A stretch of 64,000 nt of DNA from Blautia sp. Lineage in GTDB: Bacteria; Bacillota; Clostridia; Lachnospirales; Lachnospiraceae. The notes below the pieces were generated by a model. It was not told where the DNA came from. It did no database searches and was given only the letters and a program-made list of their open reading frames with translations. The stretch is from the NCBI GenBank assembly GCA_022777285.1, contig JALFGN010000065.1, positions 88,423-152,422 of the forward strand, given 5' to 3'. Position 1 is the stretch's first letter, and each line of letters starts with the position of its first letter. Below are positions 30,122 through 35,372 of this stretch, piece by piece. The translations under genes were made by a program, and so were the position numbers.

Positions 30122-30164
30122 AAACCAGGAGAGGTTGTGAGAATGGATCACAGCCTCTCTTTTC

Positions 30165-30944
30165 TTATTTACGAAACTCTTTTTTGCTGCACTGGTTTCG
30201 GTATTGTCTTAGTGTATAGCCGGTCTTTTCTTTAAAAATCTTTCCGAGATGACTCTGCGAAGAGTAGCCAAGGTAGGTGGCGATTTCGATATAAGAATAC
30301 TGAGAATAGGTCAGAAGGTTTTTTACGGCATTTATTTTCTGATTCTGAATATAAGATGTGATGGAAATTCCCTCATATTTATGAAAAAGTTCCGAGAGAT
30401 AATTGGCATTCAGATTCAGAGCTTCTGCCATATCCCGCACCACAATTTTTTCGTGAAGATGGGCGAAGATATAATCCTTGCATTTATTGATGTGAGGATT
30501 TTTTTCTTTGTTTTGTTTGCCCTGTTCATGGAGTTCTTTTACCATTTTGGTGTATTGAAGCTCTGCAAGATGAAGAATATGGTAGATTGTAGGAATATCT
30601 CTGCATTCATCAATTTTCTGTATGTAGACGTCACTGAGGGAAAGCGCAATTTCAGGGAGAAGTCCTCCGCGTATGGCTGCACGGCTTGCAAGGGTAATCA
30701 CGACAACTCCCATATATTGCATATTGCGCAGAGGATCTTTTGATAAAGTTCCCAGTTCTCCTACATAATCTTCCGAACGGCTTTTTTCCAGCCTTTCCAC
30801 ATCACCGGATTCAATACTGCCAAATTCCCGCAGTTCCTGATCGTGGGGATTATGTACTTTTTCCAATTCCTCATTTTCAAAAATTAGTCTGGAAAAATAT
30901 TCCTGTATGGAATCCTCTACGGATGAAAAAATACGATTTTTCAT
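30165..30944 (-). CDS. AraC-family transcriptional regulator
   Basis: C-terminal HTH pair LNLNANYLSELFHKYEGISITSYIQNQKINAVKNLLTYSQYSYIEIATYLGYSSQSHLGKIFKEKTGYTLRQYR. Confidence 0.93.
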   Translation of the reverse strand: MKNRIFSSVEDSIQEYFSRLIFENEELEKVHNPHDQELREFGSIESGDVERLEKSRSEDYVGELGTLSKDPLRNMQYMGVVVITLASRAAIRGGLLPEIALSLSDVYIQKIDECRDIPTIYHILHLAELQYTKMVKELHEQGKQNKEKNPHINKCKDYIFAHLHEKIVVRDMAEALNLNANYLSELFHKYEGISITSYIQNQKINAVKNLLTYSQYSYIEIATYLGYSSQSHLGKIFKEKTGYTLRQYRNQCSKKEFRK

Positions 30945-31146
30945 CAGAATAGCACCTCATTCCCTTTGCGTTTTTCTGTTTTGTACTTTCGATGAGTCTA
31001 TTGTACAGGATTCTCTTTCTGATTGCACGAGAATTATCTGAGAATCATGATAAAAAACTGAGAAAAAAGATATAAAAAGAGGAATCAATCGATTAAATTG
31101 GATACAGAAACAAAGAAATCCATGTATGGGAAAAAGGAGAAGGGCA

Positions 31147-32316
31147 ATGAAAGTAAAAGGAGTGAATCTTGGAAACTGGCTGGTATTGGAAAAATGGATG
31201 AGTCCCGCGTTATTTGATGGTACAACAGCAGAAGATGAATATTATCTTCCCACGCAGCTTTCAAAAGAGGTCTATGAAGCAAGAATCAAGATGCATCGGG
31301 CAGAGTATATCACAGAAGGAGATTTTGTAAGAATCAAATCCATGGGAATGGATGCAGTACGTATTCCGGTTCCATATTTTATCTTTGGTGACAGGGAACC
31401 TTTTATCGGATGCATTGAAGAACTGGATAAGGCTTTCAACTGGGCAGAAAGGTACGGACTTCAGGTTCTGATTGATCTCCACACGGTTCCGGACAGCCAG
31501 AATGGTTTTGACAACGGAGGAATCAGTGGAGTATGTAAATGGTCCCAGCAGCCGGAAGAAGTAGAATTCGTGCTGAATGTACTGGAAAAACTGGCAGAAA
31601 GATATGGAACAAGAAAAGGTCTCTGGGGAATTGAAGTTGTCAATGAGCCGATTCTGGAAGATATGTGGGAAACCATGAATGTACCGGAACGTTATCCGGC
31701 AGTGGATCCGGAAAAAGCCAAAGGAACAAAACCAAATACACTGGAATTTATCAGACAGTTTTATCTGGATGCATATGACAGAATCCGTAAATATATGTCG
31801 GAAGAGAAATATGTGGTCATTCATGATGCATTTGCGTTAAAAGCATGGAAAGATTTTATGCGCGAAGACAAATACAAAGGTGTCGTGCTGGATACCCATC
31901 AGTATCTGATGATGGCAGAAATGGATGGTTGCAAACAGACGGTAGAAGGTTATCTTTCTTATATTCAGGAACATTATGTAAAAGATATTCAGGAAATGGA
32001 AGAATACTTCCCGGTCATCTGTGGGGAATGGTGCCTGTTTAATTCACTTGCTGTTGGAAGAGACACAAAAGGCGGACAAAGCGTCTTAAACGGAGTCGAA
32101 GGTATGTCGGAAGAACAGATGAGTGATGAAAAGAAAAAGGAAATTTACCAGGCAGTTGCAAAAGCACAGCTGGAGGCATGGAATGCAGGTTCCGGTTATT
32201 TCTACTGGAGTTATAAACTTCTGACAGATACAGTAAACACAGATGGCTGGATTGGATGGGACAGCTGGGATCTGGGAAGATGTGTGGATTTCGGTTGGTT
32301 TCCTACAGAGAAATAA
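31147..32316 (+). CDS. Glycoside hydrolase family 5-type beta-glucanase
   Basis: GVNLGNWLVLEKWMSPALF, GIEVVNEPI (acid/base), FPVICGEWCLF (nucleophile). Confidence 0.88.
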   Translation: MKVKGVNLGNWLVLEKWMSPALFDGTTAEDEYYLPTQLSKEVYEARIKMHRAEYITEGDFVRIKSMGMDAVRIPVPYFIFGDREPFIGCIEELDKAFNWAERYGLQVLIDLHTVPDSQNGFDNGGISGVCKWSQQPEEVEFVLNVLEKLAERYGTRKGLWGIEVVNEPILEDMWETMNVPERYPAVDPEKAKGTKPNTLEFIRQFYLDAYDRIRKYMSEEKYVVIHDAFALKAWKDFMREDKYKGVVLDTHQYLMMAEMDGCKQTVEGYLSYIQEHYVKDIQEMEEYFPVICGEWCLFNSLAVGRDTKGGQSVLNGVEGMSEEQMSDEKKKEIYQAVAKAQLEAWNAGSGYFYWSYKLLTDTVNTDGWIGWDSWDLGRCVDFGWFPTEK

Positions 32317-32351
32317 ATTTAAAGATACAGCAGATGCTATACAGGAAAGGG

Positions 32352-32386
32352 CCGGATGACTTATGCAGTCATCCGACTCTCTTTCT
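32352..32386 (+). terminator. Intrinsic terminator downstream of the GH5 gene
   Basis: CGGATGACT TATGC AGTCATCCG followed by a T-rich tract. Confidence 0.7.
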
Positions 32387-32524
32387 TTAATGCGTATTTG
32401 AGAACTGTTCATTGTATTCCGTAAGAGGAACGAAATGTTCCTGTTCCGAATGCAGCAGGAAATAGCAGATTCCTATTAATATCAGTAATAACAACAGTGC
32501 TAGGATTTTCTTTATATGTTTCAT
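32387..32524 (-). CDS. Small 45-aa membrane/exported peptide: MKHIKKILALLLLLILIGICYFLLHSEQEHFVPLTEYNEQFSNTH
   Basis: Clear RBS (AGGGAG, 9-10 nt before ATG), single hydrophobic segment with positive N-terminus; immediately downstream of the 169-aa gene on the same strand. Confidence 0.65.
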   Translation of the reverse strand: MKHIKKILALLLLLILIGICYFLLHSEQEHFVPLTEYNEQFSNTH

Positions 32525-32555
32525 TTCTATAATCTCCCTGGTAGAAATAATATTT

Positions 32556-33065
32556 TTATGCTTCTTGAACAAAATTGACAGTTGCATAATCTGTCATGTC
32601 ACCTACTGTGGTTTCGTAAGTATAATGAACAGAAATGTGATCTGTGCTATATGAAACATAGCTATCGGTAAGCAACCAAATACCATATCTTGAAGGGGGT
32701 GCGGAAATAGAAACAGTATCCAAAGCAAATTTTGGTCTTCCACTTTCCATGTAGGATTGATATTTAATTGTTACAGTTCCAACGGTCATATTATTAATAC
32801 TTGTTATAATATTTTTGGTTTTTGTTTTTACGCCAGAGAGACGTGCTGCGCGAGAACTTAATTCTTTATGATTATATTCTTCATGATTGAATTTAATATT
32901 ATATTCTTCAAGAGAAAGCATTTTTGATGTTTCAGCATCATTATTAACTTCAAGGGAGTTTATGGATATAGTTGGATTCTGCGCAAATATTGTGGAAATA
33001 TTACATAGAGTACTTAAAATGACGGCTAATAATATGCTAATAATATGTTTTGCTTTTTTATTCAT
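32556..33065 (-). CDS. Secreted 169-aa protein of unknown function
   Basis: Sec signal peptide MNKKAKHIISILLAVILSTLCNISTIFAQ; RBS AAGGAG upstream; divergent from AgrC-like gene. Confidence 0.8.
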   Translation of the reverse strand: MNKKAKHIISILLAVILSTLCNISTIFAQNPTISINSLEVNNDAETSKMLSLEEYNIKFNHEEYNHKELSSRAARLSGVKTKTKNIITSINNMTVGTVTIKYQSYMESGRPKFALDTVSISAPPSRYGIWLLTDSYVSYSTDHISVHYTYETTVGDMTDYATVNFVQEA

Positions 33066-33210
33066 AGATTATGCTCCTTGTATAAGCGAATTATTATTAA
33101 TTGATTATCATTTTTAGTTTATCATTGGAATCTCCCCCTTAAATAAATCGTAGGTATTTCTTGAATCTTTTTTTTATCATGTTATAATAATACCACAGTA
33201 TTTGTAAGTT

Positions 33211-33250
33211 GGAAAAATTTTTCCTGAACGTTTTTTTTGCTCCTGACTGT
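33211..33250. promoter_or_regulatory. Candidate LytTR-regulator binding region in the divergent promoter
   Basis: On the minus strand ACAGTCAGGA (33250-33241) and ACGTTCAGGA (33231-33222), direct repeats 19 nt start-to-start; adjoining perfect 14-bp palindrome GGAAAAATTTTTCC (33211-33224). Confidence 0.5.
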
Positions 33251-33280
33251 TTTGTGATTTTCTGAAAGACAGGTAGTTTT

Positions 33281-34531
33281 ATGTTAGAAATTAGTTCTAT
33301 TATGGCCAGTATATTGATTAATTTTATTTGTATTCCCGATTTGCTGCCTGAGAAACTCACGATTCGCCAATTATTGAGTCTTTTTCTTATATTGTTTTCT
33401 CTTCATACAGTGATTGCTTTTGTGTTGCCACAATATTTTATCCCATCAATTATTTTTATGATTATTTTTTGTTTATTCACTACAGAAGTAGTTTGTTGGT
33501 CACTTATATTTTGCGTATTATCAGGATATTTTCTTGTTAATTCATTGATTGAGTTATTTTTATTTTTGTATCGAACATACATGAGACCAGATATTTACGA
33601 ATTAAAACTTTCTTTTTTGGTATATCTTGTTATTTGTTTTGGAATTGTTCTTCCTCTTGTCAAAATTTTGAAAGGAATAAAAAATAAAATTTTATATTCC
33701 TGTTCTTTGGAACAGTCAGATACGCCGACAATCATTTATTTATCTTTTTGTCTTATGCTTTGTATCTGTTGTATTATGATCAGTGGAAAAATCGGTTATA
33801 ACCGGACAACCTCTTTTGTGAATCATATCGTTTATCCGATTATTTTTTTTCTGTCTACGATACTTTTGTATTTTTTCTGTTGTCGAGTGCAGTCTCAAAA
33901 ACAGAAGGAACTTATGAATGCGTACATACAGAATCTGGAAAAGGCTTATTCTGATACCAGAAAAATCAAACATGATTATGATAATGTGTTGTCCAGTCTG
34001 GGTGAATATATTCAAAGAAAAGATCTGCAGTCGTTGGAAGAGTATTATCAAAATGAAATTTTCATCTTTAGTCACCAAAATAGAAAAGGAACATTTTTTC
34101 CGGAACTTTCCAATATCCAGATTCCAGAAATAAAAAGTCTGCTTACAGCAAAATTATTTGAAGCATCACAGAATGGTCTCTCTGTACATCTGGAAATTAT
34201 GGAGCCGGTTTCTGGATTTCCATCTCCCGTTCTTCATTTTGTAAGGATTCTGGGGATTTTTCTGGATAATGCGATAGAGGCAGCAGCAGAGACGCAGGAA
34301 AAACAATTGGAGATTGCTTTTATGAAAAATCAAGACGGGTTGTCCATTGTAATCAAAAATAGTACTTTGCCGTTAGATGTTTCTCTTAAGACTACAAAAG
34401 GTTTGGGACATGGATATGGTTTATCGATTGCTTCAGAATTAATCAGTAAACATCCGGAAGTTCTCTGGAAGATGGATTACCAGGATAAAATATTCACACA
34501 GATTCTTGAGATTAGAGGGAGAAATGTATGA
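33281..34531 (+). CDS. GHKL-domain (AgrC-like) sensor histidine kinase
   Basis: Six-plus N-terminal TM segments, H-box RKIKHDYDNVLSSL, N-box FLDNAIEAAAE, GLGHGYGLSIASELI. Confidence 0.9.
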   Translation: MLEISSIMASILINFICIPDLLPEKLTIRQLLSLFLILFSLHTVIAFVLPQYFIPSIIFMIIFCLFTTEVVCWSLIFCVLSGYFLVNSLIELFLFLYRTYMRPDIYELKLSFLVYLVICFGIVLPLVKILKGIKNKILYSCSLEQSDTPTIIYLSFCLMLCICCIMISGKIGYNRTTSFVNHIVYPIIFFLSTILLYFFCCRVQSQKQKELMNAYIQNLEKAYSDTRKIKHDYDNVLSSLGEYIQRKDLQSLEEYYQNEIFIFSHQNRKGTFFPELSNIQIPEIKSLLTAKLFEASQNGLSVHLEIMEPVSGFPSPVLHFVRILGIFLDNAIEAAAETQEKQLEIAFMKNQDGLSIVIKNSTLPLDVSLKTTKGLGHGYGLSIASELISKHPEVLWKMDYQDKIFTQILEIRGRNV

Positions 34532-35268
34532 TTCCTGTATATGTATGCGAAGATAATCCGGTTCAGTTGAAGATGATAAGAGAAATAATCGAAAAACTGA
34601 TTTTTATTGAGGATTATCATATGGAAATTCAATGTGCGGCTATTCATCCGGAGCAACTTTTGAATCATCTTACGCCCGGGATACCTACAGGAATCTATTT
34701 CCTTGATATTGATTTGAATGGAAAAATGAATGGGCTACAGTTGGCAGAAAAAATCCGTCAGTATGATCCCTATGGATTTCTTATTTTTATAACGGCTTAT
34801 TATGAACTTTGGAAACTGACCTTTGAATATAAAGTATCAGCTTTTGATTTTATCAATAAAAATCAAAGAGAAACGCTTGGGATGAACATTGCATCTTCCT
34901 TGCATGCTGCCTGGCAGCAATACAGCCGCCTTCATGCTTCTGTGAAGAAAACAGTGCCCTTTCGTGTAAATGGGAAAATTCTTTACCAGGATATACAGGA
35001 GCTTCTGTATATGGAATCGGCTTCTTCACATCGAATCATTTTACATGGTATGAAGCAAATGATTCATACATCGGGAGATTTGAATGCCTTTGAAAAAATT
35101 CTCCCTGAATATTTTTTTCGATGCCATCGTTCCTGTATCATTAACCTGAAACAGGTGTCCGTTTTTGATGAACAAAATAATTCTGTTTCTTTTCCGGATC
35201 AGACGCAATGTCCGGTAGCTTTTCGAAAAAGACGATTGTTAAAGGAGTCTCTTGCTTCTCTGAGATAG
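34528..35268 (+). CDS. LytTR-family (AgrA-like) response regulator
   Basis: Receiver IPVYVCEDNPVQLK...FLDIDLNGKMNGLQLA; LytTR domain LLYMESASSHRIILHG...FFRCHRSCIINLKQV; 4-nt overlap with kinase gene. Confidence 0.92.
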   Translation: MIPVYVCEDNPVQLKMIREIIEKLIFIEDYHMEIQCAAIHPEQLLNHLTPGIPTGIYFLDIDLNGKMNGLQLAEKIRQYDPYGFLIFITAYYELWKLTFEYKVSAFDFINKNQRETLGMNIASSLHAAWQQYSRLHASVKKTVPFRVNGKILYQDIQELLYMESASSHRIILHGMKQMIHTSGDLNAFEKILPEYFFRCHRSCIINLKQVSVFDEQNNSVSFPDQTQCPVAFRKRRLLKESLASLR

Positions 35269-35331
35269 CGGAATTCATCTTTTCTGGTTTGCAGAGGAGA
35301 TTTTCTTATGATAAGATAAATACATAAAAAG

Positions 35332-35368
35332 ACTGCCTTTTGAATTCTTAACCAATTCAAAAGGCAGT
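35332..35368. terminator. Strong bidirectional terminator (15-bp perfect stem)
   Basis: ACTGCCTTTTGAATT CTTAACC AATTCAAAAGGCAGT. Confidence 0.9.
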
Positions 35369-35372
35369 TCCT

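What the first reader, a model, noticed from the sequence alone, without database searches (positions are those of the whole stretch)
32387..35268. Agr-like two-component system divergent from two small exported-protein genes, with no agrB present
Sequence: AgrC-like GHKL kinase and AgrA-like LytTR regulator overlap by 4 nt; divergently oriented are a 169-aa Sec-signal protein and a 45-aa single-TM peptide. The whole block is visibly more AT-rich than its neighbours and is bounded by terminators at about 32.36 and 35.35 kb, so it looks like a self-contained accessory cassette. Knowledge: classical agr has AgrB and AgrD next to AgrC and AgrA; here neither is recognisable. Inference: the exported proteins may be the signal, the regulated effector, or an effector with its immunity peptide.
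Basis: partly seen in the sequence, partly recalled or inferred. Interest (0 to 1): 0.75.

Follow-up and report, generated by a model that had tools for sequence, protein, structure and literature searches.

The report
Orphan Agr-like switch with exported proteins
A gut-type Firmicute genome carries a small inserted cassette in which an Agr-type sensor and regulator pair faces two short genes for exported proteins that have no known relatives, and the genome shows no Agr signal-maker, so the pair probably switches on a secreted product in response to some other signal.

Summary
At 32387-35268 an AgrC-like GHKL kinase (416 aa, 33281-34531 +) overlaps an AgrA-like LytTR regulator (246 aa, 34528-35268 +) by 4 nt. 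Divergent to them is an operon for a 169-aa Sec-signal protein (32556-33065 -) and a 45-aa single-TM peptide (32387-32524 -). Terminators bound the block, the AT-richest of the window. No AgrB reaches Pfam's cut-off in this draft genome (93% complete); the same search finds AgrB in four genus relatives. The cassette was found in no genus relative: in 14 of 16 readable relatives its flanking genes are adjacent, so it is an insert, together with an AraC-GH5 pair.

Lack of AgrB is ordinary here: 24 of 43 sampled kinase loci lack it nearby. In several relatives the gene facing the kinase encodes a small exported bacteriocin-like protein (lactococcin-972, DUF2712). I read this as an AgrCA-type switch for a secreted effector operon, with the 45-aa peptide as immunity or signal. 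Both small proteins are orphans; the 169-aa one has an all-beta C-terminal domain without a significant fold match. Both share L-x-E-Y-N-x-x-F just after the signal or TM segment (shuffle P about 0.02). Signal and function are not shown.

The parts
32351..32377 (-). terminator-like stem-loop closing the exported-protein operon (also reads as a terminator for GH5 on +)
   Evidence: 11-pair stem; both strands reported
32387..32524 (-). 45-aa single-TM peptide (sec45), MKHIKKILALLLLLILIGICYFLLHSEQEHFVPLTEYNEQFSNTH; predicted extracellular tail carries LTEYNEQF
   Evidence: RBS AGGGAG, 31 nt after the stop of sec169; no Pfam, NCBIfam or PADLOC family
32556..33065 (-). 169-aa Sec-exported protein (sec169): signal peptide, linker with LEEYNIKF, C-terminal all-beta domain (residues about 78-168)
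   Evidence: C-terminal 100 aa modelled at pLDDT 83, pTM 0.70, six strands; no homologue found
33187..33215 (-). putative sec169 promoter (TTTCCA-17-TATTAT), poor -35, its -10 overlapping the -10 of the kinase promoter
   Evidence: consensus match only, as many found as expected by chance in the stretch
33161..33188 (+). putative kinase promoter TTGAAT-16-TATAAT with TG before the -10
   Evidence: one of the two best promoter-like matches of the stretch; consensus match only
33222..33251 (-). LytTR-like direct repeat (AACGTTCAGG and ACAGTCAGG) just upstream of the sec169 -35; start-to-start 18-19 bp instead of the canonical 21
   Evidence: once in the genome; such a pair in 2.8% of shuffles; similar half-sites 21 bp apart in L094, L097, L074; canonical spacing from PMC2766830
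33281..34531 (+). AgrC-like GHKL sensor kinase, N-terminal membrane domain to about residue 206, H231 in HDYDN, N box DNAIEAA 329, G box GHGYGL 376
34528..35268 (+). AgrA-like response regulator, REC (phospho-Asp in FLDID, about D60) plus LytTR DNA-binding domain
35331..35369 (+). bidirectional terminator closing the kinase/regulator operon

Best explanation
This is an AgrCA-type (GHKL kinase / LytTR regulator) switch that drives its own divergent operon of a Sec-exported effector-like protein (sec169) and a small membrane peptide (sec45). Proposed working: the kinase and regulator are made at a basal level from a near-consensus promoter. The kinase membrane domain senses an extracellular or membrane-borne peptide that AgrB does not make, H231 phosphorylates the regulator, and the LytTR domain binds the direct repeat next to the weak sec169 promoter. 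That turns on sec169, secreted with cleavage of its signal peptide, together with sec45, which stays in the membrane and most likely protects the producer (immunity) or reports the product to the kinase. Basis: the gene content, the divergent layout, the export signals and the insertion are seen in the sequence or by comparison. The control of sec169 by the regulator, the antibacterial or competitive role and the immunity role are inferred from relatives with the same layout.
For: Domains and invariant boxes of a working GHKL kinase and LytTR regulator. Divergent operon with a 215-bp shared promoter region; the sec169 promoter lacks a good -35 and has upstream a repeat close to the AgrA half-site that occurs once in the genome. 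Related kinases face small exported proteins. L074, same genus: lactococcin-972 family, Pfam E 9.9e-6, plus an AgrD-like 55-mer. L097 and L106: DUF2712, E 6e-9 and 2e-7; next to the L106 gene lie transporter-like multi-TM genes. L092: a 93-aa signal-peptide protein followed by a four-TM gene with a weak FtsX match. L085, L115 and L123: other signal-peptide proteins. L071, same genus: a lipoprotein beside a kinase/regulator pair that also overlaps by 4 nt. Similar half-sites lie 21 bp apart upstream of the kinase in L094, L097 and L074. Accessory insertion.
Against: sec169 has no similarity to any bacteriocin, no cysteines in the mature part and no fold match; a role in competition rests only on the layout of relatives. 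The repeat spacing (18-19 bp) differs from the canonical 21 bp, and in the related SilA system a 1-bp change abolished activity (PMC2766830). Most sampled AgrC-like loci do not face a small exported protein. No transporter or immunity gene of a known family is in the cassette. The kinase sits on a long branch of the tree and is not placed near the bacteriocin-linked kinases with support.
Confidence: 0.45

Rival explanations
1. One of the exported gene products is itself the signal: the tail of sec45 (about EQEHFVPLTEYNEQFSNTH) or the released linker of sec169 (with LEEYNIKF) is a linear peptide sensed by the kinase, so the cassette is a self-contained autoinducing circuit that replaces AgrB/AgrD; the other partner tunes or mimics it.
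For: No AgrB in the genome above cut-off. The two neighbours share L-x-E-Y-N-x-x-F behind the signal or TM segment; local alignment shuffle P 0.02. A DNA pattern for this motif occurs only three times in 2.72 Mb, two of them here; the third, in L131, showed no sign of lying in a small exported protein. Pheromone-driven GHKL/LytTR pairs without AgrB exist, such as sil (PMC2766830).
Against: The motif was picked from these two proteins, so the genome count is no independent test. P 0.02 is modest. No relatives exist to show conservation. No dedicated exporter or protease lies nearby. The tail could equally be a protein-binding or immunity motif.
Confidence: 0.22
2. The kinase is uncoupled from quorum sensing, like C. 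difficile RgaS: it senses another envelope or environmental cue, and sec169/sec45 are an ordinary envelope-associated or host-adaptation pair.
For: RgaS-RgaR is an AgrC/A-like orphan pair that does not answer to the AgrD1 peptide (PMC10327067). AgrB-less AgrC-like pairs are common (24 of 43). Among the nearest solved folds to sec169, at non-significant E about 0.1, is Lmo2686/Zea, a secreted protein that is not a bacteriocin.
Against: The compact cassette with a divergent exported-protein operon resembles dedicated local switches more than a global regulator; the repeat pattern occurs only here in the genome.
Confidence: 0.25
3. The kinase eavesdrops on cyclic peptides made by other species, or uses an AgrB missing from the draft assembly.
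For: The genome is 93% complete in 146 contigs. AgrB occurs in only 4 of 20 genus genomes, so peptides made by neighbours could be sensed.
Against: No AgrB above cut-off in the assembly; no evidence on ligand type.
Confidence: 0.08

Closest known systems
Staphylococcal-type agr (AgrBDCA)
   Same: membrane sensor domain with a GHKL kinase domain, LytTR regulator, adjacent overlapping genes, divergent candidate target operon
   Different: no AgrB or AgrD in the cassette and no AgrB in the genome above cut-off; kinase and regulator far below the AgrC/AgrA equivalog cut-offs
RgaS-RgaR of C. difficile and VirS-VirR of C. perfringens
   Same: clostridial AgrC/AgrA-like kinases and regulators not encoded beside AgrBD (PMC10327067)
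   Different: those act on several loci or regulatory RNAs; here the candidate target is the divergent exported-protein operon inside the same insert
Lactococcin-972 / DUF2712 loci next to AgrC-like kinases (L074, L097, L106)
   Same: AgrC-like kinase divergent from a small Sec-exported protein gene; in L097 with LytTR-like repeats between
   Different: those have AgrB nearby (L097, L106) or an AgrD-like gene (L074) and other membrane-protein genes; sec169 is not of their families
Peptide-pheromone bacteriocin circuits of lactic acid bacteria (sil, blp, com type)
   Same: GHKL kinase, LytTR regulator, direct repeats before the induced operon (PMC2766830)
   Different: no double-glycine pheromone and no peptide exporter seen in the cassette; repeat spacing differs

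Membership tests
agr quorum-sensing locus | AgrC-like GHKL sensor kinase | tested here: met
   HATPase_c_5 4.8e-12, motif boxes present; NCBIfam AgrC best name but 119 of 500 bits
agr quorum-sensing locus | AgrA-like LytTR response regulator | tested here: met
   LytTR 1.1e-18, REC 7.1e-11; AgrA model 154 of 400 bits
agr quorum-sensing locus | AgrB peptidase in the locus or genome | tested here: not met
   PF04647: only a sub-threshold 13.5-bit match in G000; four genus relatives score over the cut-off. Assembly is 93% complete.
agr quorum-sensing locus | AgrD precursor peptide | tested here: not met
   No AgrD-like ORF recognised between 30 and 38 kb (by eye); the 45-aa peptide is one N-terminal TM segment with a cysteine-free tail. 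AgrD elsewhere in the genome not tested.
AgrCA-type orphan two-component system (RgaSR/VirSR-like) | AgrC/A-like pair without adjacent AgrBD | tested here: met
AgrCA-type orphan two-component system (RgaSR/VirSR-like) | direct-repeat LytTR sites upstream of targets | tested here: inconclusive
   repeat at 33222-33251 with matching half-sites but 18-19 bp spacing; 2.8% of shuffles give as good a pair
AgrCA-type orphan two-component system (RgaSR/VirSR-like) | phosphotransfer between the pair and control of a target promoter | not testable with these tools
   needs a bench test
Lactococcin-972 or DUF2712 bacteriocin-like protein | sequence match to PF09683 or PF10916 | tested here: not met
   no match for sec169, although both models hit the corresponding proteins of relatives
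Zea/Lmo2686 secreted protein | sequence or significant fold similarity | tested here: not met
   no phmmer hit; Foldseek E about 0.09-0.1, TM-score 0.3-0.5, not significant

The most novel reading that the evidence does not exclude
An Agr-type kinase whose ligand is not an AgrB-made cyclic peptide but a linear, membrane-tethered or cleaved tail with an L-x-E-Y-N-x-x-F motif, shared by the effector precursor and its small companion, so that one cassette carries sensor, regulator, signal and effector without any dedicated processing enzyme.
Probability: 0.15. Interest if true: 0.65.

Novelty: new variant of a known kind. Interest (0 to 1): 0.4.

Why it matters
AgrB-less AgrC/AgrA-like pairs are common in this family (about half of those sampled), and I know of few with an identified ligand. 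This cassette is compact: one candidate target operon with two small exported products and no AgrB above cut-off in the genome. It therefore makes the question 'what does an orphan AgrC sense?' testable with one promoter fusion and two synthetic peptides. The exported protein is also an orphan with a possibly new small beta fold.

Tried and rejected
Homologues of sec169: pattern scans of genome and viral contigs, tblastn of plasmids and phages, and 397 family and 361 class genomes (8, 62) gave only itself or weak E 1e-4 to 1e-2 matches, several of them in the signal-peptide region of long unrelated ORFs (L003-L005, L125-L128). PHROG 37361 (2.7e-4) looked promising but hit no other genome; treated as noise. 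Pfam, NCBIfam, PADLOC and PDB sequence searches were negative. The full-length structure model was poor (pLDDT 45); the 100-aa C-terminal domain was good (83), but Foldseek found nothing significant in PDB or viral models. Lmo2686/Zea recurs among the non-significant hits; not pursued further. The kinase tree does not place the window kinase (long branch, open fork). Low GC as a sign of foreign origin was weakened by the same low GC in genus relatives' kinases. Rfam gave no hit over its gathering scores. An automatic count of small signal-peptide genes (69) missed several that are plain by eye, so no rate is claimed.

Full report
What is there. HK 33281-34531 and RR 34528-35268 on + overlap by ATGA. 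On - a 169-aa protein (32556-33065) and, 31 nt downstream of its stop, a 45-aa peptide (32387-32524, AGGGAG ribosome site) form an operon. HK carries HATPase_c_5, HDYDN (H231), DNAIEAA and GHGYGL boxes and a membrane domain to about residue 206; RR carries REC and LytTR. NCBIfam names AgrC and AgrA as best matches but far under the cut-offs, so these are AgrC/AgrA-like, not members of those equivalogs. Terminator-like stems close both ends at 32351-32377 and 35331-35369, and the block is the AT-richest in the window.

No AgrB. PF04647 finds nothing over its cut-off in the 2.72-Mb, 93%-complete genome; the same model finds AgrB over cut-off in four of twenty genus genomes, including one with four copies, so the search works. 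The gap in completeness leaves a small chance that one was missed. AgrD was looked for only around the cassette.

Is that unusual? No. I took 43 related kinases, most from the family search and four from the genus search, with flanks, and looked for AgrB with a profile built from the loci. Of the 43 rows of the tree (the window kinase included; the broken L074 kinase was too short for the tree) 19 have AgrB in the stretch read and 24 do not, some with short flanks. On the tree the label needs nine changes, so loss or reshuffling of AgrB is frequent. Six AgrB-less loci (L086, L089, L098-L100, L102) form one clade, and in at least two of them (L089, L099) a 61-67-aa TM peptide faces the kinase. 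C. difficile RgaS-RgaR is a studied AgrB-uncoupled case (PMC10327067).

The cassette is an insert. In relatives of the genus the DUF1934 gene and the YajC-like 155-aa gene are convergent neighbours. Of 16 loci where both can be read, 14 have them adjacent and two (L063, L070) carry an unrelated 4.3-kb insert at the same spot. In the window 5.25 kb lies there: AraC-GH5 plus this cassette. The AraC-GH5 pair occurs elsewhere in at least six relatives (L076-L081), with no match to the cassette kinase or regulator near it, so the cassette is a unit of its own. It was found in no other genome searched; kinase identity to the best relatives is about 30%.

The exported proteins. sec169 has no family, no solved relative and no homologue in any collection searched. 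Its C-terminal 100 residues fold, without an alignment, into a six-stranded beta domain at pLDDT 83 and pTM 0.70, while the full-length model is poor. No fold match is significant. sec45 is a single TM segment with a tail of about 20 aa. The tail's PLTEYNEQF resembles SLEEYNIKF of the sec169 linker, in both cases behind the signal or TM segment; the local alignment beats 98% of shuffles. A DNA pattern for the motif occurs three times in the genome, two of them here, but the motif was chosen from these two, so this shows rarity and not significance.

Regulation. HK has a near-consensus promoter TTGAAT-16-TATAAT; the facing sec169 promoter has a poor -35 and its -10 overlaps that of HK (promoter-like matches in the stretch are no more numerous than chance). 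Upstream of the sec169 -35 lies the repeat AACGTTCAGG / ACAGTCAGG; a pair as good arises in 2.8% of shuffles, and a loosened pattern for it occurs once in the genome. Half-sites of the same look (YCCTRA on the strand of the kinase) lie exactly 21 bp apart upstream of the kinase in L094, L097 and L074, the last of these within or near its AgrD-like gene. In the window the spacing is 18-19 bp. LytTR sites are normally 9-bp repeats with a 12-bp spacer, and one-base changes of spacing abolished activity in the SilA system (PMC2766830). I therefore treat the site as plausible, not shown.

Mechanism. In relatives the gene or operon facing an AgrC-like kinase is repeatedly a small Sec-exported protein, some of recognised or probable bacteriocin families: lactococcin-972 in L074 (same genus), DUF2712 in L097 and L106, unknown signal-peptide proteins in L085, L092, L115, L123, and a lipoprotein in the locally AgrB-less genus locus L071. 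A bacteriocin role for DUF2712 is my reading of these neighbourhoods; no paper in the library names the family. By analogy the window cassette is best read as a dedicated switch for an exported effector with a small membrane partner, with confidence 0.45. That the signal is one of the products themselves (0.22), or that the kinase answers to another cue (0.25), cannot be excluded.

Verdict. Real and correctly described; a new variant of a known kind (orphan AgrCA-type switch with an orphan exported-protein operon). The lack of AgrB is common; the novelty lies in the two orphan exported proteins and their shared motif.

Noticed in passing
window 30122-35372; L063:2124-6386; L070:1993-6395: The convergent DUF1934 / YajC-like junction is an insertion spot in this genus: this genome has AraC-GH5 plus the cassette, two relatives have a different 4.3-kb operon that includes a transporter-like protein.
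   Followed up: partly
L011:1046-1249, L021:1062-1247 (same loci as L089 and L099; clade with L086, L098, L100, L102): A clade of AgrB-less AgrC/AgrA-like pairs (kinases starting MLLSFF..LAIRNVWP); at least two members face a 61-67-aa single-TM peptide (MKHLLKG.../MKHFLKA...) of unknown role.
   Followed up: partly
L074:3328-5053: Genus relative G404 has a lactococcin-972 gene and an AgrD-like 55-mer facing an AgrC-like kinase gene that is interrupted by an in-frame TAA.
   Followed up: partly
L071:1618-4355: Genus relative G408 has a kinase/regulator pair with the same 4-nt overlap and no AgrB nearby, divergent from a lipoprotein without a Pfam family; an AgrB lies elsewhere in that genome.
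   Followed up: partly
L103:1-11501, L105:1-11501: AgrC/AgrB loci with an apparent pair of divergent LytTR regulators beside one kinase.
   Followed up: no
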